A stretch of DNA of 64,000 nucleotides from Bacteroidota bacterium. Its GTDB lineage: Bacteria; Bacteroidota; Bacteroidia; AKYH767-A; OLB10. The stretch is from the NCBI GenBank assembly GCA_019136655.1, contig JAGVTU010000001.1:124001-188000 (forward strand), in the 5' to 3' direction. The notes beneath the pieces were generated by a model. That model was not told the DNA's origin, ran no database searches, and worked only from the letters and a program-made list of their open reading frames with translations. Below are positions 648 to 64,000 of the stretch, piece after piece; position 1 is the stretch's first letter; each line of letters begins with the position of its first letter. Both the position numbers and the translations under genes were made by a program.

Positions 648-655
648 TACTTTTG
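648..655 (+). promoter_or_regulatory. Bacteroidota -7 promoter element for lemA operon
   Basis: TACTTTTG matches the Bacteroidota primary-sigma -7 consensus TAnnTTTG, 34 nt before the lemA start. A TTG lies at 620-622, slightly farther upstream than the usual 19-21 nt for the -33 element. It would drive lemA and the two TPM genes. Confidence 0.45.
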
Positions 656-689
656 GCACGTTAACTTACAAACCAATAAATCATTACGT

Positions 690-1280: not shown

Positions 1281-1282
1281 TT

Positions 1283-1723: not shown

Positions 1724-1727
1724 ACTC

Positions 1728-2546: not shown

Positions 2547-2630
2547 TATTGATTATTTTATTCAGCAGAGTTTTCTTGTTTTTATTTACAGATTGAAATA
2601 TATCTGATACATTTACTTTAGAAATCTAAA

Positions 2631-2990: not shown

Positions 2991-2997
2991 TAATGAT

Positions 2998-3420: not shown

Positions 3421-3672
3421 ATGTCATTAGCAGAAGCAATGAATAATCCGAAGGTAATACCGTGTGTTTGAAAATCTATTGCAACAGATTTATATCATAT
3501 AGGTATCAGAAATGTAAATGACCTTAAAAGAAGAATTCCTCAGTAATTGTATGAGTTGTCGAATAAGTTTTTTGTAATGTTCGGAACAGTTGACTAGTCT
3601 GTATTTTACGATATGAAGTTTATTTTGTTGAAAGAATTAGTGAAGAGTAGAAGAGCTAAAAATTTAAAGTAA
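3421..3672 (+). pseudogene. Degenerate helix-hairpin-helix (Cdd1/pathogenicity-locus-like) gene with three in-frame stops
   Basis: Read from the ATG that directly follows the VOC stop, one frame continues for 83 codons without a frameshift but with three nonsense codons: TGA at 3469, TAA at 3544 and TAG at 3595. The residues between them (MSLAEAMNNPKVIPCV, KSIATDLYHIGIRNVNDLKR, LYELSNKFFVMFGTVD, SVFYDMKFILLKELVKSRR) look like small helix-hairpin-helix proteins of the Cdd1/'pathogenicity locus' type, where the first stop sits at the Gly of the IPGVGKSIA hairpin. The homology is from memory of the family. All three stop codons occur, so simple recoding is unlikely and a recently silenced gene is the better reading. 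Confidence 0.65.
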
Positions 3673-3679
3673 TATCAAA

Positions 3680-4243
3680 ATGAAAAAAGATAAAACTATT
3701 TCTGAAAACGAAAAAAAGCATTTGATAGCAATCCTTCAAGCACGTTTCGAAAATAATATGCAACGTCATAAGGGAATCAAGTGGAATGATGTTGAACAAC
3801 GACTGTTAAAGCAATCAGAAAAATGTTGGTCACTGAATGAAATGGAAATTTCAGGTGGAGAACCTGATGTGATTGGCTATGATAAAAAATCTGATAAATA
3901 TATTTTTTGTGACTGCTCACCTGAAAGTCCCAAAGGCAGACGAAGTTTGTGTTATGATGAGGATGCTTTGCAATCCAGAAAAGAACACAAACCTAAAGAC
4001 AGTGCAATGGCTGTAGCAAAGTGGATGGGAATAGAGATGATGGATGAAAAGCAATATGAGTTTCTGCAATCAATTGAAAATTTTGATTTAAAAACATCAA
4101 GTTGGTTGAAAACTCCTGAAAATGTTCGCGAACTTGGTGGAGCAATTTTTGGCGACTGCCGCTTTGGTCGTGTATTTATTTATCATAACGGTGCCGAATC
4201 GTACTATGCCGCACGGGGTTTCAGAGGGATTCTTGAAATATAA
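3680..4243 (+). CDS. DUF4256 family protein
   Basis: A 187-residue soluble protein that matches DUF4256 over its whole length. Recognisable blocks are ILQARFENNMQRHKGIKWNDV, SLNEMEISGGEPDVIGYDKK, FCDCSPESPKGRRSLCYD, KTSSWLKTPENVRELGGAIF and YHNGAESYYAARGFRG. The function is unknown. No signal peptide or membrane segment is seen. It begins 7 nt after the end of the decayed helix-hairpin-helix gene and converges with the cbb3 accessory genes, whose last stop codon is only 18 nt away; no intrinsic terminator is visible in that gap. Confidence 0.92.
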   Translation: MKKDKTISENEKKHLIAILQARFENNMQRHKGIKWNDVEQRLLKQSEKCWSLNEMEISGGEPDVIGYDKKSDKYIFCDCSPESPKGRRSLCYDEDALQSRKEHKPKDSAMAVAKWMGIEMMDEKQYEFLQSIENFDLKTSSWLKTPENVRELGGAIFGDCRFGRVFIYHNGAESYYAARGFRGILEI

Positions 4244-4261
4244 AAGAAGTAAACAACGCAA

Positions 4262-4987
4262 TTAATTTGCAGGCACAGAAGGATGCTGACACGATACCAT
4301 TGAAGGTGGTGATTTGGTAACATGACAAGCTGTTTTCATTTGGGTGCCACGATAAATTAAAAATAAAGCCAAAGCTATTGATACAATCGGAGTAGCTTTG
4401 CTGTACCAGTTACGCCATGATCCTTTGAGCAGTGATACCGAGAACGACATTGCCAGCATCACAGGGAATGTTCCCAGTGCAAAAAGTGCCATATACAAAA
4501 TGCTGCCTCCAATGCTTCCTGCTGTAACTGAACCGGCAGCTGCAAGATAAACGAGCCCACATGGCAGAAATCCATTTACCAGTCCGATGCCTAAATGTGC
4601 AGAAGGTGATTGTTGTGCGAATAAATTTTTCATCAATATTCTCACCGGCATTGTCATTCGAGCAATGAAAGCAGAAAAACGGTTTTGAAATTTTTGTGCA
4701 GCAGTAAAAAAAATAATTAGCAAAATAATTATTCCTGAAAGAATACTCAACTGTTTTTGATATCCGCTAATGGAAATTGCTGAACCAAGCAAACCAAATA
4801 CTAATCCAATCAGCATATAGGCAACAGCTCTTCCTGAATTGTAAAGCAACCTTGAGATGTTAGCTTTTCTTAGAAAAGTTTTATTGGCAGGCAGCATCAT
4901 TGCTATGGGGCCACACATTCCGGCACAATGCAAACTTCCGAAAAGCCCCAAAATAAATGCTGATAAGTAGAATGTCATTCCCTGCAT
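4262..4987 (-). CDS. Sulfite exporter TauE/SafE (CcoI/FixI-cluster) membrane protein
   Basis: A 241-residue polytopic inner-membrane protein of the TauE/SafE superfamily (older name UreH/DsbD-like domain). It starts with a helix carrying GLFGSLHCAGMCGPIAMMLP, a cysteine-containing motif typical of the cytochrome-oxidase-linked branch, and has about six helices, including FLPCGLVYLAAAG. Such proteins commonly lie in cbb3 oxidase operons of Bacteroidota and Proteobacteria and are suspected of helping copper delivery or cytochrome maturation; that is inferred from context. Its ATG overlaps the stop of ccoH by one base (TAATG), so the two are translationally coupled. Confidence 0.9.
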   Translation of the reverse strand: MQGMTFYLSAFILGLFGSLHCAGMCGPIAMMLPANKTFLRKANISRLLYNSGRAVAYMLIGLVFGLLGSAISISGYQKQLSILSGIIILLIIFFTAAQKFQNRFSAFIARMTMPVRILMKNLFAQQSPSAHLGIGLVNGFLPCGLVYLAAAGSVTAGSIGGSILYMALFALGTFPVMLAMSFSVSLLKGSWRNWYSKATPIVSIALALFLIYRGTQMKTACHVTKSPPSMVSCQHPSVPAN

Positions 4988-50100: not shown

Positions 50101-52549
50101 TGCCTCTTGTTGCATAGTAGTCATTAATCCGTATTCCATAATACACATCCTGAGTATTGACGTTGCCTGTTATAAGTCTGTTTACGGGTCGCCCGGTTTC
50201 GTCAAATACAGTTGCATAAATTTTTGCCTGTAACAAACCTGATTGAGCATATTGTGCAGGGACAGAAAATTTAGCTGAGGCTTCTCCTTTGTCATCGGTC
50301 TTACCCTGTTCAACTTTTTTCTCAAACTGAAGATTGTTGGCTGTTGTAACAGAAAAATTATAATCAGTAAATTGTTTGGAATAAAAATTCTTACGCACCA
50401 GATTAAATTCAAACTCATAGTTGCGACCTGCAGCCGGTGGCCCAAACAAACTTGTAGCTTTGATGTGTGTGATTATGGTATCACTTACACTGTATTCCTC
50501 TTTGTTACTCGTGAGTTTTACGTCAATTCTGTCGGGCATAAACTCTTCCACATTTATTGTTCGGGAACCAAGTAACACATCATTGGCAGTATAAACATCA
50601 ATCACATAATTTCCCGTTACAGAAGAAGCAGGCAACTGAAACTCTGCAGTTGCAGCTCCTTGTTTATTCAATGTTTTTCGCAGCGATTTAAACTCATGTC
50701 CATTCGGCAACAACATTTTTATTTTCACCTGCATATCAGCAACAGGTTGCCATGAAGCATTTCTTACAATGGTATTCTGATAAATAGTTTCTCCGGGACG
50801 ATAAATATCTCTGTCGCCATATAAGTATGCCATATATCCTCCGGGAATATTCGTTCTTCCTCCTGTTTCAAATCGGCTGGTGCTTACCCGTGTATCGTTA
50901 AGAATAAGCATGTTATAATCTTTGCCGTAATGAGACGTAATCATTCCTGTTCTGAAATTTTGTGATTTGGATTTGATATTGGAAAAAGTTGCCTTACCAT
51001 CACCATCAGTAGTTGCTGAATACATCACCTGATTGTTGGTGGAAATAAATTTTACCTGCACTCCGGAAGCCGGTTCGGCAGTTTTAATAAAATTAGCGAA
51101 TACCGTTATTTCATCTTCACCTTGTTTTGCAATCAGTCCAATATCTGACAAGGCAATTACCTTAGTATCACGCAGCCAGTAATCATCAGAAGACGATACA
51201 TTAACTACGTAAATGCCTTTATAGGTGTTAATCTCATCCAACGATAAATTAAGCAGATTCACACCTTTAGATTTTGGTAGATTCTTAGTGTCGTACACTC
51301 GCTGAAAAGCCAGATCACCGAGATTTTCTATTCCATAAATGTTGTAATGCAAAGCACCCTGACTGCTTTCATTTCCTTCCTCATCATACTCATAATCATG
51401 ATAACTGTTTTGTCGCATGAAAGCAAGAATATTGTTTTCATAAAGTTTATAAATGGAAACTTTTACCTGAGGAACATTGGTAATGTTGATGGCAATATTT
51501 TTATTGCTTTTAGACGAAAGGTATAGTCCGTTGCTGTATAAAAATGAGATGGAAGGTTGCATTTCACCAAAAGGAATCACAGAAGTGAAATCATTTTCAA
51601 GTGTTCCACCAATCAACCCTCTGCAATTTTTAAGAAGTGTAAAACGATAACTCTGTCCCGGGTCGAAGGATGCTTTTACAAGAAAACCATCCAGTGTTGA
51701 TTCAGTCGTAAAATTCAGTTTAGGTTCAAGTTGAATAAAGGAGTTGAGGTCTTTCATATCCACAGCCTGATTGGTATAAACATGAATGACAGGTTGAGTT
51801 CCATCATATTCTCCTGTTGTATTAAATATCGTCAGTTTGTCGGGCAGAGGAATTTGCGTGCTTCTTTTCAGCAATTCAGTGGTTTTGTAGCTGCTGCCAA
51901 CACAGGGAAGCCCTTTTTCAATTTGCACTTCAAGATTTACATTTTTCAGTTGTTGCCAGTCGGTAACACTTACTGCCAAAACCACATCAGAAGTAGCTTC
52001 GTTGCTTTGTAATGTAAATGGTACCTGTTTGCCATCGAGAAAAATTTTTGTGAGTGATTGCAATTGCACAGGATTGGTTGAGTAGTTAAAGTTGAGTGTT
52101 GCAAGCAAACCTACTGCATTGTCTGTTGTATTGACAGTCCAGTGTGCAAGTAAATCGGTTAATGCAAGATAAGGAGTGTGAAAACTGAACTGCTGCAATC
52201 CGTCAAGCGTTAGGGCAGGAGTGTTTTGAAGAATTTTTGATGTGACATCAGCTTTATAATCGGTAGCAGGAGCAAATCCTGTTTCGGGCGAAAACAACAA
52301 CTCACGTTTTGTATTCCATTTAAAAAGACCTCTTACTGCGGGAGTAAAAGAAAAATAGGACGTACTGTCCCAGCGGTTGAGTACACTGTCATTCACCAAG
52401 TCCTTGTCGAAGGTGAAAACTAAATTCTGTTTCAGTTCAATTTCTTTATCAAAATTTTTATTTACTACAGAAACGGTGTTTTGATTGGTACAGGAACTTA
52501 AAAGCAGAACAGCTACTGCTGCCAGGCAGATATACTTCAACGGGTACAT
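47141..52549 (-). CDS. Bacterial alpha-2-macroglobulin (YfhM-like) lipoprotein
   Basis: An 1802-residue lipoprotein: signal peptide with lipobox VLLLSSC, then macroglobulin-like beta domains, the YGDRDIYRPGETIYQNTIVR start of the MG block, the A2M domain with FSGDLRVMACVWSNNRFGSA, and a thioester motif G-C1342-L-E-Q in DYPHGCLEQTVSIAFPQ. The C-terminal thioester-containing alpha/alpha fold and receptor-like domain (VTDMIPSGFEIENPRI) complete it. Such proteins trap attacking proteases in the periplasm. An intact thioester shows it belongs to the trapping type. Its stop overlaps the pbpC start. Confidence 0.96.
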   Translation of the reverse strand: MYPLKYICLAAVAVLLLSSCTNQNTVSVVNKNFDKEIELKQNLVFTFDKDLVNDSVLNRWDSTSYFSFTPAVRGLFKWNTKRELLFSPETGFAPATDYKADVTSKILQNTPALTLDGLQQFSFHTPYLALTDLLAHWTVNTTDNAVGLLATLNFNYSTNPVQLQSLTKIFLDGKQVPFTLQSNEATSDVVLAVSVTDWQQLKNVNLEVQIEKGLPCVGSSYKTTELLKRSTQIPLPDKLTIFNTTGEYDGTQPVIHVYTNQAVDMKDLNSFIQLEPKLNFTTESTLDGFLVKASFDPGQSYRFTLLKNCRGLIGGTLENDFTSVIPFGEMQPSISFLYSNGLYLSSKSNKNIAINITNVPQVKVSIYKLYENNILAFMRQNSYHDYEYDEEGNESSQGALHYNIYGIENLGDLAFQRVYDTKNLPKSKGVNLLNLSLDEINTYKGIYVVNVSSSDDYWLRDTKVIALSDIGLIAKQGEDEITVFANFIKTAEPASGVQVKFISTNNQVMYSATTDGDGKATFSNIKSKSQNFRTGMITSHYGKDYNMLILNDTRVSTSRFETGGRTNIPGGYMAYLYGDRDIYRPGETIYQNTIVRNASWQPVADMQVKIKMLLPNGHEFKSLRKTLNKQGAATAEFQLPASSVTGNYVIDVYTANDVLLGSRTINVEEFMPDRIDVKLTSNKEEYSVSDTIITHIKATSLFGPPAAGRNYEFEFNLVRKNFYSKQFTDYNFSVTTANNLQFEKKVEQGKTDDKGEASAKFSVPAQYAQSGLLQAKIYATVFDETGRPVNRLITGNVNTQDVYYGIRINDYYATRGSNMTVDLAACNKNGNGINAEAFVEVVNNDWYNVVEKTDNGNYRYVSQKREVVVLSKKMSISAQGSKLNFIPSNSGEYEVRVSRNKGENYSASSFWAYGYGYTSNSSFNINTEGQVTIQADKDTFLPGEKANILFKTPFQGKLLVTVESDKLLHYYYINTDKRSAMLSLPIEESYLPNVYVTATLFRPLDDGSMPLTVAHGFMPLMVSKPDLKIPVTIECADKSRSKTKQSIKIKTPVRGDVEVTIAVVDEGILALKNQKTPDPYGYFYQKQALQVNSYDMYAKLLPDLQMKSSLTGGDGYDLSRRINPLTNKRVQLVALWSGILKTNAAGEAYYNIDIPQFSGDLRVMACVWSNNRFGSADKHIKVADPVVISPSIPRFLSPGDTLQMPVTFTNSTNAPLKCNTACSVTGNLKLLNAANLQTTIAAGTEFVANWTLVAGSTIGNADIIISAKSGIDNFTDKTNITIRPPSSLVKETSSGELSGTKSLTIASDFIPSSAAMKLVVSNSPLVQFSDELSYLLDYPHGCLEQTVSIAFPQIYYGDLAKTITTKTNFTYDAHSNVQEAIRKIESMQIYNGSLTYWPGSVIENWWSTAYALHFLTEADKAGYDVNNNTVNKIFEYLKQKVKLREVETVYELNKDNVIIKNTRAKREIIYSLYLLALNGKQDLSSMNYYKSNHTLLTADSRYMLACAYQAIGDTKSSIALMPEKFGDEKSIRSTNGNFHSYIRDYALSLNCLLETDAGNPQIPQMARTLSQIIQKEKWMSTQERAFSFLALGKFVNKNVSKNVKGTLFSGGKQIAEFSGKDLILKDKNLVGKTLEIKTQGEGKLYWFLEVSGIKENTPVKEEDSKIMVRKSFFNRFGQPLLNTFKQGELIVVQIALTSQGGMEADNIVVTDMIPSGFEIENPRITDEREMTWIKNQQTPDYFDIRDDRINLYTSSGKTTRYYYYTVRAVSTGSFIMGPVSADAMYNGEIHSYSGAGRVHIIK

Positions 52550-52696
52550 ATCGTTTTAATTTGAGAATGATTTGGAATTGCTAAAGATAACGGTTTCTGT
52601 TTTATAATAGTATTAACAAAAAGCAACTGCCGGAAAATAGAATGGAGAATTAAAAACCGTAGTCAGTTGCAGCATGGGAGTATGCCGGCAAGATCT

Positions 52697-52730
52697 ATAA
52701 AAAAACAACCAACAACCGGAGAGGGTTGTC
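52697..52730 (-). terminator. Probable terminator of the DUF4175-rsbW operon
   Basis: ACAACC (52714-52719 region) and GGTTGT (52724-52729) form a short stem on the minus strand, followed after three bases by TTGTTTTTTT. The stretch 52550-52696 has no gene and probably holds the promoter of the alpha-2-macroglobulin gene. Confidence 0.5.
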
Positions 52731-52759
52731 TTAAAGGAATAAAAGGAAAAAAACCAGGT

Positions 52760-53179
52760 TTACTCTACGTGTCCCGTTTTGAAAAACAATTCTACCGTTG
52801 CACCATTGTTGGAGAAAATTACCTGGTCGGCAAGATGTTTCATCAGAAATACGCCACGTCCTGTAGGTTTTTCAATATTTTCAGGAGCAGTAGGGTCGGG
52901 GAGGTTGTAATAATCAAAACCACTGCCCTGGTCAGTAACCACAAATGATATGGTATCACCTTCCAGTTCGTAAGCAACATTTACCTTTTGGTTAGGGTTG
53001 TATTTATTTCCATGCTGAATGGCATTATTTACAGCTTCGGTCACGGCAACTAAAATATTTCCATAGGCATCCTCATGTATGTTATGGTCGCTGCGTAAAT
53101 TATCTATCAAGCGCTCTATGATGCTGATGCTTTCCGGTTTAGAGTCTATCACTAAAGACTGGATGTTTTTTGTTGTCAT
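52760..53179 (-). CDS. RsbW-like anti-sigma regulatory factor (serine kinase, HATPase_c_2)
   Basis: A 139-residue GHKL-fold ATPase of the RsbW/SpoIIAB type. The N-box is VAVTEAVNNAIQHGNKYNPN, and the ATP-lid motifs are FVVTDQGSGFDYYNLPDPT and GRGVFLMKHLADQV. Relatives bind a sigma factor and phosphorylate an anti-anti-sigma protein; in Bacteroidota, which lack sigma-B, the partners are unclear. It follows the DUF4175 gene by 6 nt. Confidence 0.92.
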   Translation of the reverse strand: MTTKNIQSLVIDSKPESISIIERLIDNLRSDHNIHEDAYGNILVAVTEAVNNAIQHGNKYNPNQKVNVAYELEGDTISFVVTDQGSGFDYYNLPDPTAPENIEKPTGRGVFLMKHLADQVIFSNNGATVELFFKTGHVE

Positions 53180-53185
53180 TATTCC

Positions 53186-56100
53186 TTAATATTGGAGTCC
53201 CTGAAAATAATTATTTACTAAATTTTTATAAAATGTATTTAACCCCGGAGGTACAGTATTGAGTAACTCCGTTTGTTTTTCTTTTAGCTTTTTATACTCC
53301 TCAAAAGCGGCAGGGTTTCGCAAAAATTGCTCTTTTGCTTGCTCGGCCTTACGGGTCTGATCCTGCTCTCTTTCGCGCTGGGCATTTTCGGCTTCGAGCA
53401 ATCGTGTAAGTATTTCCTGCTGTCGTTTAAGCGTTTCTTCCGTGATGCGTTTGTTGACAATATCGCGCTCATTTTGCTCCATCTGATTGGCTAATTGTCC
53501 GAGATTGCCAAGGCTGTTTTTACCGTCCTTGTTTTCCTGCTGATTGAGTTCGTTCAGTCCGTTGCGTATAGCTTCCTGTTGTGCTGCCATCCTTGCAAGT
53601 TCTTCGCTCATTCCTTTGTCGCCCTTACCTCCGTTTTTCTTCATTCCTTCCAGTTTTCCTTTCATATTTTTCATCTGCTCGGTAAGTTGTTGCTGCATCA
53701 TTTTCAGTTTTTCTGCCGAAGGTCCGGGTTTGCCTTTGCCGGGTTTTTTGCATGAGCCGTTGCCTTGTTTTTGCTGCTGCTGTTGCTGTTGCATTTGCTC
53801 CAGAGCTTCACTTAACAGAAGTGCGAGGTTGTTGGCTGATGTCATAACGTACTGTTGTGAACTGCGTGCTACAGGTACTTGTCTTTCCTGCAAAAATGCA
53901 ATAGATTTTTGAATATTCGACTCAATAGCCGAAATTTCTGTGTTTACTGTATGTTGTATCTGAACCACACGTTTGCTCAGAGCAAACAGCGAATCTTCAA
54001 TGATTTTGAAATCATCCTGCAGTTTTTTCTGCTGCTGGCCGGATTTTATATAGGAAGGGTTGTTCACATCCACTGTCCGTAAATCTTCCATCAGAGCTTC
54101 CTGATCAAATGAAAAACGCAACAGGTTTTCAAGCAGATACCGCAATGAAGCCATGTCTTCCTCAGCCTGTTCCTGCTCGCTCTGCGCCATCTGTTGTTTC
54201 ATTTTGTTAGACATACTCTGCATTTTTTCAGAAGCCTTTTTTTGAGATTCAGAAGCTTTTGATTTGTTGTTTTGATTTAACTCCTGCTCACTTTGCTGCA
54301 TGTCCTGTTCAATATCTTTCTGTTCCTGCTCGGTATTGGCAAGTTCCTGCGGGAATTCCATCTCCTGATTTTTCTTTTCAAGTTCGGCAATATCTTTCTT
54401 TAGTTCTTCAAACTGTTTGTTCAGCTCATTCTGTTTTTCTTTCAGTTTCTGACTGTCTGCATTTTTTTCCTTGCTCTTATCCGAAAGTTTTTTCTGATCC
54501 TCTGCCAGTTTATCGAGGTTGGTGATGGCATCCTGCAGTTTTTGTTCCAGTTCCAGTTGTTTGAACAGTTCCAGGGTTCTGTCCATTTGTTTCTCCAAAT
54601 CTTTGTTCGACATTTTCATCTTGTCGAGCATGTCCTGCACTTTTTGTTTGTCGAGTTGTGCCATCATCTGTTCCAACTGACGCATCAACTCTTTCAGTTC
54701 AGGGTTTTGCAATTTGTCAAACAATTCCTGAATCTGCTGTTGCTTTTCGGCCAACTGACTTTCATTGTTTTTATATTCATTCTGACGAGCCAGATTCTGT
54801 TGTTGGTCGTTTTTAATCTGATTCAGCTTTTCGTCTAATTCTTTTTGTTGACGCAACAGTTCTTCAACACGCTTTTTATCTTCGTAATCAGGATTTTTTT
54901 TGTCTAAAAGTTTTCGCGCTGCTTCTGCAATCTGCTTCTGAATTTTCTGTGCCTGCTTCAGACTTTCCTGCAAATCTTTCTTTACGTTTTCATTGGTTTT
55001 CTCGGTGTTTTCAGCTAATTCTTTCAGCGTTGGTGCTTTGAATATTTGTGTTTGCGAACGGGCAGACTTAGGTCCACTCACACCATCATTATCCCACACT
55101 TCAAAATAATATTCTAACTGATCGCCCGGTGTTACGCCCAAAGTAGAAGCATCCCAATAGTGAAAGAATTCATTCTGTGTTGTATTTTTATTGATGCTAA
55201 TCAACTCACTCATCAGTTTGTCGGAGCGCGAAGTGGTGTCATTGCTGCTTTTCAGAAAATGGTAATGAAATGCCAGTTTTGAAAAACCATAATCATCTTT
55301 TATCAGCCCTCTGAAAAATAAACGCTGAGTGGAAAGAGAGTCTTTTTGCTCTTCAACACTGATGGTAGGATATTGGTCGGGAATAACATTGATGCTGTAA
55401 CTCAACGTATCCTTATTGGCAAGAAAATCGTTGGCTGTTGCAATGCTGTAAGTAGCACTGTGCAACATTCGTTTCGAAAACTGATAGCTTCCACCTTCTT
55501 CAGCAGTTGCAGGATATACACTGTCATTCATGGTTACTGAAAATTTGTTGGTGTTTTCAGTTTTAAAATTCCATTTAAGATAGGTGCCTGCCGGTATCTG
55601 AAGGTCACCGGTATTTTTCAGTGTTTCGTTTTTGCGTCCCAAATAAGCCGGATAATTTATTTCAACGTTAAAATTCAATACTGTAGGGTTGGGAACAGCT
55701 TTCAGTTCAAAGTTGTCGGAGTAAAAACCATCAGCAAAAAACTGAAATGGTGTATTTTTTATGACATGATGAAATGTGTAGGTGAAGGATTGTTTGTCTT
55801 CTTTATCCATCTTAAACTGGCGGTTGCCTGTTTTCAGATATACCTGATCGGGCAATTCGGCACCACTGACTTTTAGTGTAAGCGTAAAATCATTTTGTTG
55901 TATTACAGTCAGCTCTTTATTCTTAATCTCAAAAACAAATGGCGCAGGTTTATGATAGGTTTCGTTGTAATGTACCAGTCGTGTTGTGCCGTCTTTAATA
56001 ACATTGGGTGCGGCAAAAAGTATAAACACCAAAACTCCCAGCGGAAGCAATGCATAAGGAAGATACTTTTTGTTTTTGCTTAGGTCAATTGCTCCTGAAA

Positions 56101-56527
56101 AAGGAACTGGATTCAGGTCTTTTATCTTCTGTTCGATACCTGCTCTCAGTAATTCGCTGTCGTGTTGCTGAAGCTGTTCATTGAGTTGAAGCGTATTGAG
56201 GAGTTTGTCTTTTACCTCTGAAAAATGATTACCGATAATGGCAGAGGCTTGCTGATAGGATATCACTTTGCCCAGGTGCAGCATTTTAAGCAATGGAATT
56301 ATTACCAACTTGACAAGAACTGCAATAACCACTGCCAGATAGAGATAGAAAAATACCGCCCGCATTACAGGACTCATCCAGGCAAAGTGTTCTGCAATGG
56401 TTATAAACAAAAAGAAGGCAACAGAAATTCCTGTAGCATAAATACACCCTTTGATTACCTGATTGCGGTAATACTTGCGGATGAACTCATCCAGTTTTTG
56501 AATCAGTATGAAATAGTTACCTGACAT
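53186..56527 (-). CDS. DUF4175 giant membrane/coiled-coil protein
   Basis: An 1113-residue protein. Two or three helices at the N-terminus (FFLFITIAEHF, AVFFYLYLAVVIAVLVKLVI, LPYALLPLGVLVFILFAAPN) are followed by beta-rich extracytoplasmic segments, and from about 510 to 1090 by a very long Gln/Glu/Lys-rich coiled coil (ELAENTEKTNENVKKDLQES and QQKELDEKLNQIKNDQQQNL), with a poly-Gln tract near 890. This matches the DUF4175 family, common in Bacteroidota. The function is unknown. An RsbW-like kinase follows at 6 nt and is likely functionally linked. Confidence 0.9.
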   Translation of the reverse strand: MSGNYFILIQKLDEFIRKYYRNQVIKGCIYATGISVAFFLFITIAEHFAWMSPVMRAVFFYLYLAVVIAVLVKLVIIPLLKMLHLGKVISYQQASAIIGNHFSEVKDKLLNTLQLNEQLQQHDSELLRAGIEQKIKDLNPVPFSGAIDLSKNKKYLPYALLPLGVLVFILFAAPNVIKDGTTRLVHYNETYHKPAPFVFEIKNKELTVIQQNDFTLTLKVSGAELPDQVYLKTGNRQFKMDKEDKQSFTYTFHHVIKNTPFQFFADGFYSDNFELKAVPNPTVLNFNVEINYPAYLGRKNETLKNTGDLQIPAGTYLKWNFKTENTNKFSVTMNDSVYPATAEEGGSYQFSKRMLHSATYSIATANDFLANKDTLSYSINVIPDQYPTISVEEQKDSLSTQRLFFRGLIKDDYGFSKLAFHYHFLKSSNDTTSRSDKLMSELISINKNTTQNEFFHYWDASTLGVTPGDQLEYYFEVWDNDGVSGPKSARSQTQIFKAPTLKELAENTEKTNENVKKDLQESLKQAQKIQKQIAEAARKLLDKKNPDYEDKKRVEELLRQQKELDEKLNQIKNDQQQNLARQNEYKNNESQLAEKQQQIQELFDKLQNPELKELMRQLEQMMAQLDKQKVQDMLDKMKMSNKDLEKQMDRTLELFKQLELEQKLQDAITNLDKLAEDQKKLSDKSKEKNADSQKLKEKQNELNKQFEELKKDIAELEKKNQEMEFPQELANTEQEQKDIEQDMQQSEQELNQNNKSKASESQKKASEKMQSMSNKMKQQMAQSEQEQAEEDMASLRYLLENLLRFSFDQEALMEDLRTVDVNNPSYIKSGQQQKKLQDDFKIIEDSLFALSKRVVQIQHTVNTEISAIESNIQKSIAFLQERQVPVARSSQQYVMTSANNLALLLSEALEQMQQQQQQQKQGNGSCKKPGKGKPGPSAEKLKMMQQQLTEQMKNMKGKLEGMKKNGGKGDKGMSEELARMAAQQEAIRNGLNELNQQENKDGKNSLGNLGQLANQMEQNERDIVNKRITEETLKRQQEILTRLLEAENAQREREQDQTRKAEQAKEQFLRNPAAFEEYKKLKEKQTELLNTVPPGLNTFYKNLVNNYFQGLQY

Positions 56528-56701
56528 CTCCTCCCTTTGTTATCACTAACGCTGAAAACAGCACATTAGTTATAAGCAAATATACAATAATGATAAGCCC
56601 TAAAATTACTGAAAAATGATGACTTATAACATTGCTTCCAATAAAAATTCCATGAAGAAACCAACAGAATTTTATCAGTCAAAAAGTAAGGTAATGAAAT
56701 A

Positions 56702-58039
56702 TTAAAGCAATTTAAAATTCTCTAAAAACTTGGTGGTGTAATTTCCTTTTCGGAAGTCTTCGTTTTTCATCAATTGAGTATGAAATGGAATGGTGGTTTT
56801 TACACCTTCAATCACATATTCACTTAATGCACGTTCCATGGTATTGATTGCCTCTTCGCGCGTCTGCGCTATGGTGATTAGTTTAGAAATCATGCTGTCG
56901 TAATTTGACGGAATGGTATAGCCGGCATACACATGAGAGTCAACACGCACACCATGTCCGCCCGGTACGTGCAGGTTGGTAATTCTTCCAGGTGAAGGCC
57001 TGAAATTATTATAAGGGTCTTCAGCATTGATACGACACTCGATGGCATGCATTGCAGGGAAATAATTCTTACCCGAAATAGGGTCGCCTGACGCAATTTT
57101 TATCTGCTCTTTTATAAGGTCGTAATTAATTACTTCTTCTGTAATGGGATGTTCCACCTGAATACGGGTATTCATTTCCATGAAATAAAAATTCCTGTGT
57201 TTGTCCACCAGAAATTCTACCGTTCCCACACCTTCATATTTCACAGCGAGGGCAGCTTTTATAGCGGCTTCGCCCATTTTTTCGCGAAGGTCTTTTGTCA
57301 TAAATGGTGATGGCGTTTCCTCCAATAATTTCTGATGTCGCCTTTGAATAGAGCAATCTCTCTCTGAAAGATGGCATGCCTTGCCATACTGGTCGCCTGC
57401 AATCTGAATTTCAATATGACGGGGTTCTTCAATAAATTTTTCAAGATACATACCATCATTGCCAAAAGCAGCACCGGCTTCCTGACGGGCAACATTCCAT
57501 TCTTCTTCAAAATCTTCGGGTTTCCACACAATGCGCATTCCGCGACCACCACCTCCGGCAGTTGCTTTCAGAATAACTGGATATTTAATTTTTTCGGCAA
57601 CACTCAGCCCTTCCTCTACACTACTTAGTAAACCTTCAGAGCCGGGAATGGTGGGAACACCTGCAAGTTTCATGGTGTTTTTAGCATTGCTTTTATCGCC
57701 CATGCCGTCAATTTGCTCAGGAGTGGCTCCAATAAATTTGATTTTATTTTTTGCACATATTGCGCTGAACTTGGAGTTTTCAGAGAGAAAACCATATCCC
57801 GGATGTATGGCATCAGAATTGGTAATTTCAGCAGCAGCAATGATGTTAGGAATATTCAGATAGGAACCTTTACTTGGAGGAGGGCCTATACACACTGCTT
57901 CATCAGCAAAACGTACGTGCAGACTTTCGCGGTCGGCAGTAGAATAAACAGCTACCGTTTTGATGCCCATTTCCTTGCATGTGCGAATGATTCGCAGAGC
58001 TATTTCACCACGGTTGGCAATAAGTATTTTCTTGAACAT
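56702..58039 (-). CDS. accC: Acetyl-CoA carboxylase, biotin carboxylase subunit
   Basis: A 445-residue ATP-grasp biotin carboxylase, first subunit of acetyl-CoA carboxylase. N-terminal [20 protein letters not shown], the ATP loop [40 protein letters not shown] (with the CS-x-QRRHQK site next to it) and the catalytic [16 protein letters not shown] are all present, and the C-terminal domain is normal. It lies 67 nt after accB. The carboxyltransferase subunits are not in this window. Confidence 0.98.
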
Positions 58040-58106
58040 ATTCTTCTATAAATAAATATTCGAATATCCGTTTAACGGAAAAAAATCCTGAAAAAACGAA
58101 AACAGA

Positions 58107-58595
58107 TTAAGCGGGGTCAATTAAAAATAATGGCTGATCGTACTCTACCGGTGTGGAGTGTTCTACCAATACTTTCACCACTTTTCCTTTGATATCGCTT
58201 TCAATTTCATTGAAGAGTTTCATTGCTTCAATGATGCAGATCACCTGACCTTCTTTTATTTCATCACCTACATTCACAAAATTGGGTTTGTCAGGAGTAG
58301 GGGTGCGATAAAATGTGCCTATCATTGGCGACTTAATGGTTTTATATCTTGCTTCATCACCTTTTGGAGCTTCTTTGGCCGGAGTTGGTGCCGGTGCCGG
58401 TGCTGCAGCTACAGCAGCGGGTGCAGGAGCCGGAGCCACTGCCACAGGTGCAGCCAAAGGAGCTGCTATATGTACCATTTGTTCGCGGTGAGGATTTTTA
58501 ATGGTGATTTTAAAATCCTTTTGTTCGAGGTGAACTTCACTCACACCTGCCTTTGCTACAAACTTTATAAGTTCTTCAATTTCTTTCTTGTTCAT
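58107..58595 (-). CDS. accB: Acetyl-CoA carboxylase, biotin carboxyl carrier protein
   Basis: A 162-residue BCCP. The N-terminal helix (KKEIEELIKFVAKAGVSEVH) and EQKDFKITI are typical; a mobile Ala/Pro linker follows (residues about 45-80), then the biotinyl domain with GTFYRTPTPDKPNFVNVGDE and the biotin lysine in CIIEAMKLFNEIESDIKGKV. It is the first gene of the accBC operon; a TACTTTTG -7 element lies at 58679-58686. Confidence 0.97.
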   Translation of the reverse strand: MNKKEIEELIKFVAKAGVSEVHLEQKDFKITIKNPHREQMVHIAAPLAAPVAVAPAPAPAAVAAAPAPAPTPAKEAPKGDEARYKTIKSPMIGTFYRTPTPDKPNFVNVGDEIKEGQVICIIEAMKLFNEIESDIKGKVVKVLVEHSTPVEYDQPLFLIDPA

Positions 58596-58678
58596 ATTTC
58601 TTCTTTTAATTAACCTTCTTTCATTACTACCTTAACAAGTATTGCTTTTTTAAGTTAAGGATTCATAAAGGAAGGTTT

Positions 58679-58686
58679 CAAAAGTA
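58679..58686 (-). promoter_or_regulatory. -7 element of accBC
   Basis: TACTTTTG on the minus strand matches TAnnTTTG; it implies a leader of about 75 nt before accB. Confidence 0.5.
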
Positions 58687-58890
58687 GAAACTTTTTTAAT
58701 AATGAAAAAAAATAAGGCTAAAGGGTTGAAATAAAAGATATTTAGATTAATATTGGGTTCTAAATGGAGTTTAAGATTAAAAATTTGAATTCGTTTGGAG
58801 AATTTATCTTCTTAATAGTATCATAATAATATTTAATAATTCTTTTTAAAATAAAAACTATGACATAATAAAAGTAAATAAATAAAAAAA

Positions 58891-59044
58891 TTGCGTTAGC
58901 GATTTCTTGGTTTCTAAATCCGCGAAATTTTATTACAGTCAAGAATGAGCACAACGTCTGCGATTAGCGCGGGCTTGGCTTATTTGACTGTGGGTGCTTC
59001 GCGGTACCTCAACTCTGATAACTAAGTACCGCGCGATTTTTTTT
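58891..59044 (+). ncRNA. Candidate structured RNA ending in an intrinsic terminator
   Basis: ACAGTCAA (58935-58942) plus ATGAGC (58945-58950) pair with GCTTAT (58978-58983) plus TTGACTGT (58984-58991), a 14-bp stem with one two-base bulge. It is followed by CGCGGTAC (59000-59007) paired perfectly with GTACCGCG (59026-59033) and eight T at 59037-59044. No ORF explains this. It could be a small RNA or a leader/attenuator of the giant gene that starts at 59111. No promoter was identified. The rest of 58687-58890 is AT-rich and shows nothing. Confidence 0.45.
59000..59044 (+). terminator. Strong plus-strand intrinsic terminator
   Basis: A perfect 8-bp GC-rich stem (CGCGGTAC/GTACCGCG) with an 18-nt loop and an eight-T tail. 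There is no annotated plus-strand gene upstream; the nearest gene, accB, is on the other strand. Confidence 0.75.
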
Positions 59045-59110
59045 ATCCCACCACCTACAAATCACAATAAAATATTATAATTTAGTATCACCTTTCAAAA
59101 ACCAAACACA

Positions 59111-62100
59111 ATGAAACGACTAACAACTATAGTAGTGTTGCTGATATTAGCAGCCAATACGGTATGGGGACAACAAAGTGTCAATATCAATCTGACAGTG
59201 CCCGATACCTTAGGAGGATGCATGCCCAATCGTTTTACGGCAAAAGTAAAGTCGCCCGGGGCTATATTTACCATCACCCAACAATTGTTGATGGGCACCA
59301 ATGTAGCTTCCTGTAATGATATAGGACTTTATGTAATAACAGACAGTGTTCAGGGCAATGTGACAAACATAAATTATGATACCCTCACAAAAAAATGGTC
59401 GGCAAACATAGTTGATACTGATACAGTGACCATCTATTACAGAGTAGCAATATCATGCAGCAACATTCCACAGAACAGCGACTCTATCAACAATATCAAG
59501 TTAAGACAAATATTCGAGGACACGCTTGGTGGATTTACTTACACAATAAATCCGCTGTCAACTTCCAATCAAATCACCCAAAACCTGTCCTTACCATTGA
59601 TCATAGACCGTTCTCCCGCAACGTGGCAGTCGTCCTATGGCGATGAGGTGGATATTTACTATTACTATTACAACGGAGGCAGCGCAAACGCAAGAATCAG
59701 ATTTACATTCTTAGACGACCCTTCACATTACTGCGATGTGCTGCAACAACAAAGCCTGATGTATCGCAATGGCAACACCAACTACGTAAGTTATGTTTCA
59801 GGCGATACAACAGGAATAATACTGAAAGCTAATGACACACTGGTATTCCGTTCGCACAATATTGTTGCAAAGTGTTTGACACAGTGCAACAAATATGTAC
59901 AATTTTCATGGAGTTGTGATACAGCCCCGCCAGCAACCGATTATTTTTGCAAAAGCTGTAAGGTATCAACAGATTCTACTTCTTACAGTGTACAGTTAAC
60001 CAACCAGCCCGGTGTAGGATACACAAGAGTGTTGCCTGCCACCTTGCCTGATATGAGTTGTATGAACGACAGTGTTCACTGGCGTTATGTGGTCGCCAAC
60101 ACGGGCATAGGAGCACTGGACACATTAAGTATCACCTTGAAAGCACTGCTTGCATATACGTTTCAGAACCTTTCGCTCATAGATACTTCCACCTTTGAGG
60201 TAAGGGCGATAAACTGCAACAACTGTCATCTGAAAGTAAACAAACTCATTAATCAAAACAACCTTTGCAGCACAGTCGTACCGGTATCGCTTCAACAGGC
60301 CGTTATACAAACAGATGATTTTGGAAAAACAGATACGCTGGTGATAGATTTTACCACGTACCGCTGCGTACAGGATACACCGGTGCTGCTGAATACAGGA
60401 AAATATTACGACCGGTGGGAATTTGAAACAAAGGCAGGAGTATGTGGAAAAAGCCAACAGGTGAATCTTTCCATCACCAACAACCCATTGCTTCCTGATG
60501 CCGACATAGACCAACAACTGATATTTGTACCCTTAGTAAGCGATTTAAGTGTTCCACCGGGCATGAATACCATTTGGGGCGACAGTACTACAATGGAAAT
60601 AGAAATGAAAGGATTGATGGGCGATGATTATGATTATACGCTGTTGCATTGCCCTTCAGGAGCCACAGGATGTATAGCAGATGGATGGATAAGAGCAACG
60701 GTACATTGCGAACAGAACTTAACAGTGCCAACACTTGCCACAGGACTGCGCCTGCGGTGGCTAAATCCTGCAACTAATCAGTATGTTTATAAAACACCGG
60801 ATTTTTATCATACACCCAATGATTCAGGATTATGTATAGCATCAGACTATTACTATTATTTTGATTTAAGCGATTCACTCATGCGCCTGATGTTAGACAG
60901 CGGGGTGTGTGAATTTACATTACGCGCCTGCTGCAATGCAGATATAGGACGAACTCCCTACAGTGTAACATTTCATCTGCTTGCCGACCCATCAGGCAAT
61001 TGCAACAACCTGAGCATGACAAATGGAATTGCCCAGTGTACAGGGGCAGGATGTACGTGGCTACCGCTGAGTGCCAAAGGCGGAAGCATAGCAGTACACT
61101 GTCCGGGCTGCAAACATACTGGCCCCATATCATTCAGATATCTGATGGAACGCACCAGCTTAGGACTTGAAGATACAGACAATAACGGCATAGCCGACAC
61201 ATCGGCACAGGTAATAGACCCTGCAGGGCAGTGGTATCAGACCTATGGAAACAGGCTTCGGCTAAATGTGAGCAGCTATGGCGACCAACTGCGCGACCGT
61301 TTGGTGGCACACACTCAGGAGGGCGATCCCACCAACGGAGGTTATGATATGAACATGCTCAACCAGAAGGGCGCTTATCTTAAATACATGCAGGTATCAC
61401 GCAATATACCTTCTGCATTTGATACCATGAAACTAACGGTGACAGGATTTACGCTGTATATAGACAAACCCAATTCAACGCAAACTTCGTGCATCAACTG
61501 CAGCGATTTTAATGTAGGAGTAAATTACCGCACCCAGCATATCATCAGCGTAAGCGGAAATAACATGTACCATTTTCTGGATACCATCATCGGCCACAAC
61601 AGTTTTCTGTTCACCTTCAGCGCGTATGATTCGGCAGGAGCGGTTTACGGAAATTTGTTCGACTATAACTACATGAGCAGTTATTATACCGATACGATAG
61701 ATACACTAAAAAACTTTTTTGAAGGACAACGTTACCGTCTTGAAGTAACCTATCGCGAATGTGGAAGTTTTGAAGCCCCTAACAGCATCAACCTTTCGGT
61801 GGATGACTACCTGCACCAAAAACTCATATCAAACAACCTTTGGCTGAGCGGCAAAAAACAAAGTTACGATGCATTTGACATGAACCTTTCCGCACCCAGA
61901 GATACGCTGGATGTAAAAGCACATGGATGGACTTTTAACGCCAATGACCTTACACTGATGCAAATCAATCAGCAGTTTGCGGATTCATTTATTTTTATGT
62001 GCGAAAATTTTTCGGGATATCACTATGTTTTTTCACAGGAAGGATACAACAGCACAAGCATAACAGCCGACACCTCTTGCAGAAGACAGGTAAAACTTAC

Positions 62101-64000
62101 GGCACTCATGCAATCGGCAGGAGGCAAGACTGACTTTTATCCTTACGAATACCGATTGCCAGCTTATGAGCCGGAGAGCTATACGGTAAAAATTCCGCAG
62201 GGATATCACACCGTGTCGGGCAGTGGACGCATGAGCTATTTATCGTTTACGGGAATACATAGCCAAACACCCCAATACCGTCCATGGATACCGGTATCAA
62301 TACCATCGGGAGGAGGCAGCATCATAATTCAGGACAACAACACAGGGCAAGCTGTGTGCTGGAGCGAAGACAAATATCCGGCACCGCAGAATGACAACAG
62401 CCAGTATGTAGGCGGATACAAAATATATAAGTATATCATTTTTGATATAGAACCTGATGACTGCCCATTAGACTCGGTAAACTTCTATGCCGACTCTGTA
62501 AACATAGCCTTTGAAGCTTCGGACTATGGCTGTTATCCTGCAACGGCATGCGATACGGTATTTATCAAAAACATGCAGCAGAACTATCTCTTTCCGGCAC
62601 GGCCCAACCTGAGCGCCCTGCTCAACCCTGCCAACGTTACAGCCACAGGACATCATGTTTGCATGAATTTAGATTTTCAAAACAGCAAAACCTCAGGCAT
62701 CAGTTACGCTGGTGCTTCCCATGTATTTGTAGTTATACCCGCAGCACCATATCTTAGCAACTGGAGCTATGCGATTAACTCAGGAGCTATGCAACCAGTA
62801 ATCAACGGAGTGGTTCCGGTGGTGAGCAACCTGTTGCTCGATAGTGCGGTAAACGTTCAGTTATGTGCCGATTATGATTCGTGCATAACCGATACGGTAA
62901 AAACATTTATGCTTCAATACGGATGGAACTGCGATGGATTTCCTGCTTCTAATATGCAGGTTCCCGATTCGATGTGCTATGCCGACAGTATAGAAGTAAC
63001 TTTTAAACGGGAGCAAGAGCAGTTGAGTTATTCATTTAAAGAGCATGACAGCACGTATGCGCTTTGCCGCAATTTTGAAGTAAGCATGACGGTGAATAAT
63101 GCAGGTCTTGGAGCGGTGTATCCGTTGCAGGTATTTATAGATAGTTTGGTATCTTCGCTGCAGGTGCAGAGCGTAATTATATCCAACTGCAGCACCCAGG
63201 CAAGCGACACGCTCATGGTATCAGGAATAAACACATGGAATATAACAGGAGCAAATATGGCAGCGATAGGTTTTGCCGACAGCTCGCTTGCAGCAGAATG
63301 TATGCTGGTGAGGGTAATACTGAACCCTACGTGTGCCTACCGCAATGTGAATATATTGCCGAACCTGATAGTTATTATGCAAAACCTTTGCAATGATACC
63401 ATAGTGCAAACAGCCAGCAGAATACACAACTTCACAGGCCAGAGCGCAGGAGACACCATAGTGTGGAACGGACAGAGTGATTGTATGGACTGCTTTACAC
63501 TCACCAAAACGGCAAGTGTGGGTAGTACAGCAATAGGCGACACTATTACATTCAACATACAAGTGTGCAGCCACAATGCCACTGCTGATACGGTGGTAAT
63601 ACAAGAACTTTTACCTTCTGTATTTACAATGACGGCAAGCAGTGTTGGATTTCCTTACACCAACACAAATTTCCCTGCCGACACTTGTTTGAATTATTCA
63701 GTATCGGGCTATTATACTGCCGTAGGCAGCTGCCCCGACAGCACATTTACCAACCACGCAACTCTGCTAACAACAACGGTAAATTATTTGGACAGCGTGT
63801 GTGTGGAGGTAACTTATCCCTGCACAGACAGCACAACATTTATCATTCCCGCCAACACCTACAGCACAACATTGGCTTACCGATATGATACATTGAACAT
63901 TTACATTGCAGGAACGCTGTATGTTAACGACACACTTAAACTGATGCGTTGCACGGTGTATATGGATGCACAGGCACAGATAGTGGTAATGAATGGCGGA
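59111..64000 (+). CDS. Giant secreted cysteine-rich repeat protein, 3' end outside window
   Basis: An ORF open for 1,630 codons up to the window edge, so its true length is unknown. A signal peptide (MKRLTTIVVLLILAANTVWG) is followed by long beta-rich extracellular sequence rich in Asp, Thr, Ser, Tyr and Asn. C-x2-C pairs recur at residues 280/283, 369/372, 664/667, 794/797 and 1458/1461, several opening a new segment (HCPGCKHTGPISF, SCINCSDFNVGVN, DCMDCFTLTK). Residues about 1465-1570 resemble a DUF11/SdrD-like repeat. The gene is unlike its neighbours in base and codon look. It is probably a cell-surface or type IX-secreted protein; the sorting signal, if any, would be beyond the edge. The homology family is not recognised. 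Confidence 0.9.
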   Translation, partial: MKRLTTIVVLLILAANTVWGQQSVNINLTVPDTLGGCMPNRFTAKVKSPGAIFTITQQLLMGTNVASCNDIGLYVITDSVQGNVTNINYDTLTKKWSANIVDTDTVTIYYRVAISCSNIPQNSDSINNIKLRQIFEDTLGGFTYTINPLSTSNQITQNLSLPLIIDRSPATWQSSYGDEVDIYYYYYNGGSANARIRFTFLDDPSHYCDVLQQQSLMYRNGNTNYVSYVSGDTTGIILKANDTLVFRSHNIVAKCLTQCNKYVQFSWSCDTAPPATDYFCKSCKVSTDSTSYSVQLTNQPGVGYTRVLPATLPDMSCMNDSVHWRYVVANTGIGALDTLSITLKALLAYTFQNLSLIDTSTFEVRAINCNNCHLKVNKLINQNNLCSTVVPVSLQQAVIQTDDFGKTDTLVIDFTTYRCVQDTPVLLNTGKYYDRWEFETKAGVCGKSQQVNLSITNNPLLPDADIDQQLIFVPLVSDLSVPPGMNTIWGDSTTMEIEMKGLMGDDYDYTLLHCPSGATGCIADGWIRATVHCEQNLTVPTLATGLRLRWLNPATNQYVYKTPDFYHTPNDSGLCIASDYYYYFDLSDSLMRLMLDSGVCEFTLRACCNADIGRTPYSVTFHLLADPSGNCNNLSMTNGIAQCTGAGCTWLPLSAKGGSIAVHCPGCKHTGPISFRYLMERTSLGLEDTDNNGIADTSAQVIDPAGQWYQTYGNRLRLNVSSYGDQLRDRLVAHTQEGDPTNGGYDMNMLNQKGAYLKYMQVSRNIPSAFDTMKLTVTGFTLYIDKPNSTQTSCINCSDFNVGVNYRTQHIISVSGNNMYHFLDTIIGHNSFLFTFSAYDSAGAVYGNLFDYNYMSSYYTDTIDTLKNFFEGQRYRLEVTYRECGSFEAPNSINLSVDDYLHQKLISNNLWLSGKKQSYDAFDMNLSAPRDTLDVKAHGWTFNANDLTLMQINQQFADSFIFMCENFSGYHYVFSQEGYNSTSITADTSCRRQVKLTALMQSAGGKTDFYPYEYRLPAYEPESYTVKIPQGYHTVSGSGRMSYLSFTGIHSQTPQYRPWIPVSIPSGGGSIIIQDNNTGQAVCWSEDKYPAPQNDNSQYVGGYKIYKYIIFDIEPDDCPLDSVNFYADSVNIAFEASDYGCYPATACDTVFIKNMQQNYLFPARPNLSALLNPANVTATGHHVCMNLDFQNSKTSGISYAGASHVFVVIPAAPYLSNWSYAINSGAMQPVINGVVPVVSNLLLDSAVNVQLCADYDSCITDTVKTFMLQYGWNCDGFPASNMQVPDSMCYADSIEVTFKREQEQLSYSFKEHDSTYALCRNFEVSMTVNNAGLGAVYPLQVFIDSLVSSLQVQSVIISNCSTQASDTLMVSGINTWNITGANMAAIGFADSSLAAECMLVRVILNPTCAYRNVNILPNLIVIMQNLCNDTIVQTASRIHNFTGQSAGDTIVWNGQSDCMDCFTLTKTASVGSTAIGDTITFNIQVCSHNATADTVVIQELLPSVFTMTASSVGFPYTNTNFPADTCLNYSVSGYYTAVGSCPDSTFTNHATLLTTTVNYLDSVCVEVTYPCTDSTTFIIPANTYSTTLAYRYDTLNIYIAGTLYVNDTLKLMRCTVYMDAQAQIVVMNGG

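What the first reader, a model, noticed from the sequence alone, without database searches (positions are those of the whole stretch)
59111..64000. Giant Cys-rich secreted protein with recurring C-x2-C segment starts
At least 1,630 residues of extracellular protein, unusual in its many cysteines for a surface protein and in the regular recurrence of C-x2-C pairs where new beta segments begin. No known family is recognised except a DUF11-like part near the visible end. It may be an adhesin or type IX-secreted matrix protein, and may have a partner under the control of the upstream hairpin.
Basis: partly seen in the sequence, partly recalled or inferred. Interest (0 to 1): 0.55.

Follow-up and report, generated by a model that had tools for sequence, protein, structure and literature searches.

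The report
Giant surface protein with RNA leader
The gene makes a very large cysteine-rich protein that carries export signals for the surface of a Bacteroidota bacterium and is paired with a smaller partner gene, and it is preceded by a strongly conserved folded RNA, without a match in the standard RNA library, that also sits in front of many other surface and DNA-modification genes.

Summary
The ORF is real but cut by the window: the whole protein has 2,463 residues. It has a signal-peptide-like start, Cys-rich beta-sandwiches (Cys is the best conserved residue), a beta-helix (Z 28.1 in a homologue's model), helices and a type IX secretion (T9SS) sorting domain. C-x2-C pairs are enriched (5; 1.8 expected) but not regularly spaced. 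Of 49 complete family 3' ends, 48 are followed by a partner gene, 36 with a 4-nt overlap; partners are PD40 propellers with a T9SS tail. No described family covers the protein; an adhesin or matrix role is inferred.

The 'upstream hairpin' (58892-59044) is the larger find: a ~160-nt RNA whose fold covaries strongly, also in 45 copies not used to build the model; in 72 of 295 Bacteroidia genomes; no Rfam match; on the strand of the next gene in 69 of 71 cases, median 55 nt before it, ahead of surface, lipoprotein and restriction-modification genes. Most likely it is a cis-acting leader with a switchable terminator; transcription and mechanism are untested.

The parts
58892..59044 (+). Structured leader RNA element (model R2 positions 1-170): rod-like hairpin ending in a T-run
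58967..58972 (+). Apical 3' strand of the leader (GCGCGG): can pair with the apical 5' strand or with 59029-59034
   Evidence: read from the sequence; the alternative helix was counted on 25 other copies, this copy not among them
59029..59044 (+). Terminal strand CCGCGC (59029-59034) followed by eight T (59037-59044): terminator-like end of the leader
   Evidence: sequence; 63 of 70 copies have a run of 4 or more T in the last 15 nt
59111..64000 (+). Giant T9SS cargo gene, codons 1-1630 of 2463; continues outside the window to G000:C5:190502, where the partner gene overlaps its end by 4 nt
59111..59170 (+). Signal-peptide-like start (residues 1-20)
   Evidence: crude hydrophobic-core test; sequence
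59570..60496 (+). Two Ig-like beta-sandwiches (residues ~154-462), Cys-rich
   Evidence: AF2 model of low overall confidence; VIA-align Z 10.7, rmsd 5.0, 254 aligned, to integrin alpha-V leg domains
63497..63676 (+). DUF11-like domain (residues ~1463-1522), placed by alignment to relatives
   Evidence: DUF11 24.9 bits in the C25 paralogue, 19.6 and 19.8 bits in L058 and L074; no match in this protein itself at E <= 1
63820..64000 (+). Start of the right-handed beta-helix (residues ~1570 to ~2040; most of it beyond the window), placed by alignment to the homologue L078
   Evidence: AF2 model of L078, pLDDT mostly 80-94 there; VIA-align Z 28.1, rmsd 3.1, 417 aligned, to 7eea tailspike

Best explanation
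The gene encodes the large member of a two-gene T9SS cargo module. The protein is exported by Sec and then T9SS, through its C-terminal sorting domain. On the surface it forms a long, disulfide-braced stalk: Cys-rich Ig-like sandwiches, a DUF11-like linker, a beta-helix and a helical part next to the sorting domain. It is encoded with a 4-nt overlap next to a PD40 beta-propeller that is also a T9SS cargo, and the two probably work together as a surface or matrix adhesion/recognition complex. Expression is probably gated by the ~160-nt leader RNA. As the RNA is made, the conserved RCGYGGGC strand at the tip of the rod can pair within the rod, or with the terminal CCCRCG strand next to a U-run; choosing between the two would decide between read-through and termination. 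Shown here: gene structure, sorting domain, predicted folds, partner linkage, multicopy family, RNA structure by covariation, orientation and distance of the RNA. Inferred: adhesion, disulfides, complex formation, transcription of the leader, and the switch.
For: T9SS tail and SP-like start; SprA and 7 PorP/SprF proteins in the genome; 48 of 49 complete family 3' ends followed by a partner, 36 with the 4-nt overlap, partners SP-like 48 of 52; partner = PD40 + Por_Secre_tail in two of three scanned; a partner-like stretch inside one relative (L074); Cys conservation; beta-helix in the homologue's model. Leader: compensatory changes in 16 of 54 pairs over five copies; eight copies from outside the training genus, aligned by sequence alone, give a like rod with 12 of 48 pairs compensated; 25 copies; 45 copies not used to build the model: 546 double-change cells against 159.2 +- 10.6 shuffled, score 0.598 against 0.178, slid 0.070-0.094; competing helix 94.1% paired, 13 double-change cells against 3.6 shuffled; 69 of 71 on the strand of the gene on the 3' side; T-run in 63 of 70.
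Against: No binding or expression data. N-half model poor. The window's own partner is cut by the contig end and its 206 residues match no family. The leader is not a defining part of the protein family: no R2 match at E <= 0.01 in G005, G012, G016 and G019, whose giants are in the family, and in the own genome and G003 the giants on C3, C15 and C41 have none (L066). A TAnnTTTG-like promoter is seen by eye upstream of several leaders, but a TA(A/C)TTTAG box also lies between leader and start codon, so the giant may be transcribed without the leader. In the 45-copy count the outermost short helices of the model are weakly supported (helices 1, 8 and 9: 71.1, 67.7 and 50.7% paired; helices 2-7: 85.6-98.1%). 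RNAalifold's own covariation term on the five copies is small (-0.39 kcal/mol). The competing helix uses well-conserved letters (88.3% pair even when shuffled) and its strand also pairs within the rod, so the two signals are not independent.
Confidence: 0.5

Rival explanations
1. The giant is a surface enzyme: the beta-helix is a polysaccharide lyase or epimerase and the N-half a carbohydrate-binding array.
For: The beta-helix ranks with lyases, epimerases and tailspikes among the solved structures.
Against: No lyase or glycosidase family is listed for the protein in Pfam or NCBIfam at E <= 1; the same fold list holds the surface adhesin PfbA and the passenger protein Vag8. No active-site test was made.
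Confidence: 0.12
2. The leader element is an independent small RNA gene that ends at its own terminator; its place before surface genes reflects co-regulation in trans, as with FopS sRNAs and SusC genes.
For: A TAnnTTTG-like promoter upstream (by eye) and a second promoter-like box after the element; terminator-like end; multicopy sRNA families acting on surface genes are known in Bacteroides (PMC11697453, passages).
Against: The gene on the 3' side is on the same strand in 69 of 71 cases, at a median of 55 nt, whereas the 5' side is 36 same and 27 opposite; FopS sRNAs are 65-70 nt with a single-stranded seed.
Confidence: 0.25
3. The element is a mobile hairpin (MITE-like) or a recombination site inserted in front of accessory genes.
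For: Rod-like inverted repeat, 11 matches in one genome (G034), some copies near ORFs that look like integrase, excisionase-type or IS110-type genes (my reading of ORF starts), and two on plasmids.
Against: Compensatory changes through the rod, fixed orientation and spacing, 0 of 70 with attC-type ends. Target-site duplications were not examined.
Confidence: 0.1
4. The giant family is an antigenic-variation reservoir: arrays of 5'-truncated giant copies and intact partner genes recombine into the full-length locus.
For: Arrays of truncated giants alternating with partner genes; 5'-shortened giant-type ORFs SP-like in only 8 of 37 while partners are SP-like in 48 of 52; exact 114-bp repeats at two pairs of contig ends (C5/C3 and C8/C15) and 13 of 54 contig ends of the genome inside this family (my reading).
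Against: No recombinase or switching was sought; repeats at contig ends are expected from assembly of any multicopy family; truncated copies may simply be decaying.
Confidence: 0.15

Closest known systems
T9SS type A cargo with Por_Secre_tail (PF18962 / TIGR04183)
   Same: Sec-type start, C-terminal sorting domain, modular protein; SprA and PorP/SprF in the genome
   Different: 2,463 residues, 50 Cys columns kept in 9 or more of 11 rows, N-half without a family match, closely linked partner gene
Right-handed beta-helix proteins (tailspikes, PfbA adhesin, AlgE/AlgG epimerases)
   Same: Same predicted fold (Z 21-28)
   Different: Embedded in a long T9SS protein; no beta-helix sequence family listed for the window protein
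PD40 beta-propellers (PF07676)
   Same: Two of three partner-type proteins scanned have PD40 above cut-off
   Different: The partner is a T9SS cargo with its own tail and is tied to the giant
Structured 5' leaders with competing terminator (riboswitches, attenuators, protein-bound leaders)
   Same: Cis position, covarying fold, T-run, two mutually exclusive helices
   Different: No Rfam match; precedes surface and restriction-modification genes rather than one pathway; ligand or binding protein unknown
FopS sRNAs of Bacteroides (PMC11697453, passages read)
   Same: Multicopy RNA family linked to surface genes
   Different: 65-70 nt, trans-acting, single-stranded seed plus terminator hairpin; ours is a ~160-nt rod in cis position

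Membership tests
T9SS type A cargo | C-terminal sorting domain | tested here: met
   Por_Secre_tail 36.8 bits, Pfam cut-off 27, residues 2386-2461; TIGR04183 19.5 bits, under its cut-off of 23
T9SS type A cargo | Sec signal peptide | tested here: met
   crude hydrophobic-core test only
T9SS type A cargo | T9SS machinery in the genome | tested here: met
   SprA 2487 bits; seven PorP/SprF above cut-off; other T9SS components not searched
T9SS type A cargo | T9SS-dependent surface location | not testable with these tools
   needs proteomics in wild type and T9SS mutant
Right-handed beta-helix | parallel beta-helix fold | tested here: met
   on the model of the homologue L078, not of the window protein: Z 28.1, rmsd 3.1, 417 aligned to 7eea; by sequence Beta_helix is above cut-off in the relative L073 and not listed for the window protein
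Ig-like adhesin modules | beta-sandwich fold with described adhesin function | tested here: inconclusive
   Z 10.7 to integrin alpha domains, about 8 to pilins, ClfA and Als3, in a model of pLDDT 58.9
PD40 propeller (partner) | PD40 repeats | tested here: met
   PF07676 30.0 and 25.9 bits, cut-off 20.9, in two of three partner-type proteins scanned; L026 has none; the window's own partner fragment (206 aa) has no match
Any Rfam 15 family (leader) | match at gathering score | tested here: not met
   none for window 52000-64000; in 20 loci holding leaders only one tRNA; permissive scans of two copies gave only matches far below gathering scores or none
Cis-regulatory leader RNA | covarying structure | tested here: met
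Cis-regulatory leader RNA | same strand and close upstream of a gene | tested here: met
   69 of 71 with an ORF on the 3' side, median 55 nt
Cis-regulatory leader RNA | transcribed with, and controlling, the gene | not testable with these tools
   needs RNA-seq and reporter assays
attC recombination site | RYYYAAC ... GTTRRRY ends (motif recalled) | tested here: not met
   0 of 70 copies, both strands

The most novel reading that the evidence does not exclude
The leader is a new class of bistable riboregulator, used across Bacteroidia to gate phage-facing and environment-facing genes: surface proteins, T9SS cargo, TonB receptors, lipoproteins and restriction-modification enzymes. It senses a common signal (a metabolite, a stress or a specialised anti-terminator protein) and switches transcripts such as this 7.4-kb giant on or off by choosing between a rod and a terminator.
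Probability: 0.3. Interest if true: 0.88.

Novelty: new variant of a known kind. Interest (0 to 1): 0.68.

Why it matters
The protein alone is a new family of a known kind (T9SS surface giants), notable for its partner and its arrays of shortened copies. The leader matters more. An RNA spread over the class, with this much covariation, no Rfam match and a consistent place before surface and DNA-modification genes, would be a missing layer of gene control in Bacteroidota. It is open to test at once, since named strains of Chryseobacterium and of a Chitinophagaceae genus carry it on plasmids.

Tried and rejected
Regular C-x2-C periodicity: rejected. Full-length match to a known family: none in Pfam, NCBIfam or solved structures beyond the tail domain and short partial matches. 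Relatives by single-protein scan of genome contigs: nothing; the alignment scan gave 10 loci, MAG records titled Bacteroidetes/Bacteroidota, Bacteroidia or Chitinophagaceae, one of them weak. Family outside the order: 1 of 395 phylum genomes, G000 itself, at E <= 1e-15 with at most two candidates scored per genome, so relatives could be missed. Antigenic switching: kept only as a rival. attC site: rejected. FopS sRNA: rejected. IS110 bridge RNA (idea recalled): considered because one copy (L164) lies near an IS110-type ORF; dropped because I noticed no other such neighbour; no dedicated test. Phage records: no blastn match to one copy. Viral fold library for the C-half: tailspikes and other beta-helix proteins, nothing added. 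Rows beyond the Ig-like pair in the N-half look were not informative. Papers: listings, and passages of PMC8040213, PMC9723704, PMC11697453, PMC7366714 and PMC4596501, showed me no description of this RNA; I saw titles, starts of abstracts and passages only. PMC8040213 names palindromic Bacteroidetes candidates whose sequences I could not see, and PMC9723704 mentions 5' elements without Rfam hits before other genes (pheA, hisG and others), so an overlap cannot be excluded. Listings for the protein gave nothing that I used.

Full report
WHAT IS THERE. The ORF at 59111 is open to the window end. The window is G000:C5:124001-188000 of a 2.96-Mb, 27-contig genome. The gene ends at C5:190502 and encodes 2,463 residues. 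Parts in order: signal-peptide-like start; a Cys-rich half to about residue 1560; a DUF11-like domain near 1463-1522; a right-handed beta-helix from about 1570 to 2040; helices from about 2140 to 2365; the T9SS tail at 2386-2461 (beta-helix and helices placed by alignment to the homologue L078). The next gene begins inside the stop codon (4-nt overlap) and is cut by the contig end after 206 codons; this fragment matches no family.

CYSTEINES. Cys makes up 2.72% of residues and is the best conserved residue in an 11-row alignment (0.80, next Trp 0.47). Five C-x2-C pairs against 1.77 expected (19 of 500 shuffles reach 5) is a modest excess; the spacing is irregular. Conserved Cys in an exported protein suggest disulfides; this is inference.

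FAMILY. In the own genome there are copies on C25 (88 and 79% identical parts; the frame is interrupted and the contig ends inside it), C13 (C-part plus partner), C3 (2,644 aa plus partner) and N-terminal pieces at contig ends on C8 and C15. With one sequence, 12 of 120 relatives match at E <= 1e-6 (these counts include the own genome). With a 7-row alignment, 23 of 42 genomes of the order match at E <= 1e-15, several only by the C-half or the tail, and 1 of 395 genomes drawn from the phylum, the own one (at most two candidates scored per genome). Named records are MAGs titled Bacteroidetes/Bacteroidota, Bacteroidia or Chitinophagaceae.

PARTNER. Of 49 giant-type ORFs complete at the 3' end, 48 are followed on the same strand by a partner-like ORF, 36 with exactly 4 nt of overlap; the exception is L129. 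These 49 include shortened copies and relatives with another N-half. Of three partner-type proteins scanned all have a T9SS tail and two have PD40 repeats. In L074 a partner-like stretch lies inside the giant, near an M43 peptidase domain. Tandem arrays of shortened giants and partners occur in G001, G002, G003, G012 and G019. By a crude hydrophobic-core test, N-terminal giants are SP-like in 13 of 17, 5'-shortened giant-type ORFs with their own start in 8 of 37, partners in 48 of 52. Five of those eight (L025, L075, L129, L131, L132) are relatives with a different N-half rather than shortened copies. By my reading, 13 of the 54 contig ends of the genome lie in this family.

FOLDS. The N-half model is weak (pLDDT 58.9, 10 sequences). 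Its best part, residues ~154-462, is two Ig-like sandwiches (Z 10.7, rmsd 5.0, 254 aligned to integrin alpha-V; pilins, ClfA and Als3 near Z 8). The C-half model, made on the homologue L078, is better (70.2); its beta-helix matches tailspikes, the passenger protein Vag8, epimerases and the adhesin PfbA (Z 21-28). A shared fold shows no function.

THE LEADER. Upstream of most giants of the window's genus lies a rod-like RNA (z -4.84, -6.30 and -7.44 in three copies). A model from five copies (16 of 54 pairs with compensatory changes) found it in 18 of 42 order genomes at E <= 1, with the stricter filters of large searches; the window copy itself gave only a partial 22.5-bit match with that first model. 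Eight copies from genomes outside the training genus, aligned by sequence alone, give a like rod, 12 of 48 pairs with compensatory changes. On 25 copies: 269 double-change cells against 79.3 shuffled (the five training copies are among them, and the alignment is fitted to the model). On 45 further copies, none used to build model R2 although some come from the same genomes: 86.6% of cells paired against 62.4 shuffled, 546 double-change cells against 159.2, score 0.598 against 0.178, and 0.070-0.094 when slid (also fitted to the model, and inherited changes count more than once). There helices 2-7 are paired in 85.6-98.1% of cells, while the short outer helices 1, 8 and 9 reach only 71.1, 67.7 and 50.7%, so the ends of the model are less certain. 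R2 matches 72 of 295 class genomes at E <= 0.001, with at most nine candidates scored per genome; three of the 72 belong to the order. In ten loci of 179 kb R2 gave three matches at E <= 1, two on named plasmids and the window copy at 62.4 bits, and none elsewhere.

CONTEXT OF THE LEADER. 73 copies were examined: the nearest ORF on the 3' side is on the same strand in 69, opposite in 2, none in 2; on the 5' side 36 same, 27 opposite, 10 none. The median distance to the start is 55 nt (50 of 69 within 100 nt). 45 of 69 downstream proteins are SP-like against 31 of 118 other ORFs (crude ORF calling, and the control contains spurious ORFs). Eight of the 69 are giants of this family, all SP-like; without them 37 of 61. 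I scanned 20 downstream proteins of my choice: DNA methylase or HsdR domains in five, PLD-like in one, TonB plug in two, LamG plus T9SS tail in two, SBBP propeller in one, nothing above cut-off in nine (the protein of L139 is the second gene after the leader, not the first). Two named plasmids carry it: Rhizosphaericola mali pB3-10, 60 nt before a hypothetical protein, and a Chryseobacterium shandongense plasmid about 850 nt before an annotated T9SS cargo (the plasmid gene tables are incomplete). No Rfam match.

MECHANISM. The conserved apical strand can pair in the rod or with the terminal strand before the U-run. The alternative helix pairs in 94.1% of cells (88.3 shuffled) with 13 double-change cells (3.6 shuffled); slid versions give 0 to 5. 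This is the layout of a transcription attenuator. What would flip it is unknown: a metabolite, a NusG-type factor (literature listing only) or another RNA-binding protein are all open. The genomes G005, G012, G016 and G019 have giants but no R2 match at E <= 0.01, so leader and protein family are separable.

KNOWN OR NOT. The protein is a T9SS cargo by the features tested, in a family I found in no library searched. The leader is a structured cis-element by the features tested, with no described family found in the searches named. Whether it is among the palindromic candidates of PMC8040213 could not be checked.

Noticed in passing
window 58892-59044 and 72 further copies: Leader RNA spread over the class without an Rfam match, before surface, lipoprotein, T9SS, TonB and restriction-modification genes.
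   Followed up: yes
L115, L116, L123, L124, L125: Arrays in which giant copies shrink to 3' stubs (down to 143 codons) while the following partner genes stay mostly full-length and often overlap the stub; stubs of 143 codons occur in two genera (G003, G019).
   Followed up: partly
G000 contig ends: C2, C3 (both), C5, C8, C10, C13, C15, C19, C21, C23, C24, C25: 13 of 54 contig ends fall in the giant/partner family, so the true copy number is probably under-counted by the assembly.
   Followed up: partly
L004 (G000:C25) 1-4658: Paralogue with 77-88% identity whose frame is interrupted between 1966 and 2043; real damage or assembly error cannot be told.
   Followed up: no
L074 2916-10169: Relative with an M43 peptidase, PKD and a partner-like stretch in front of the shared C-half, which suggests that the C-half is a reusable display module.
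   Followed up: partly
L197, L198, L199, L206: Leader lies between a divergent ORF that looks like an XRE-type regulator (read by eye) and a downstream gene, a TonB-dependent receptor in L199 (Pfam) and a similar-looking ORF in L206.
   Followed up: no
residues 685-697 of the giant (near window 61163-61201): Conserved GLQDSDNDGxAD-like stretch that resembles a calcium-binding DxDxDG loop (motif recalled).
   Followed up: no
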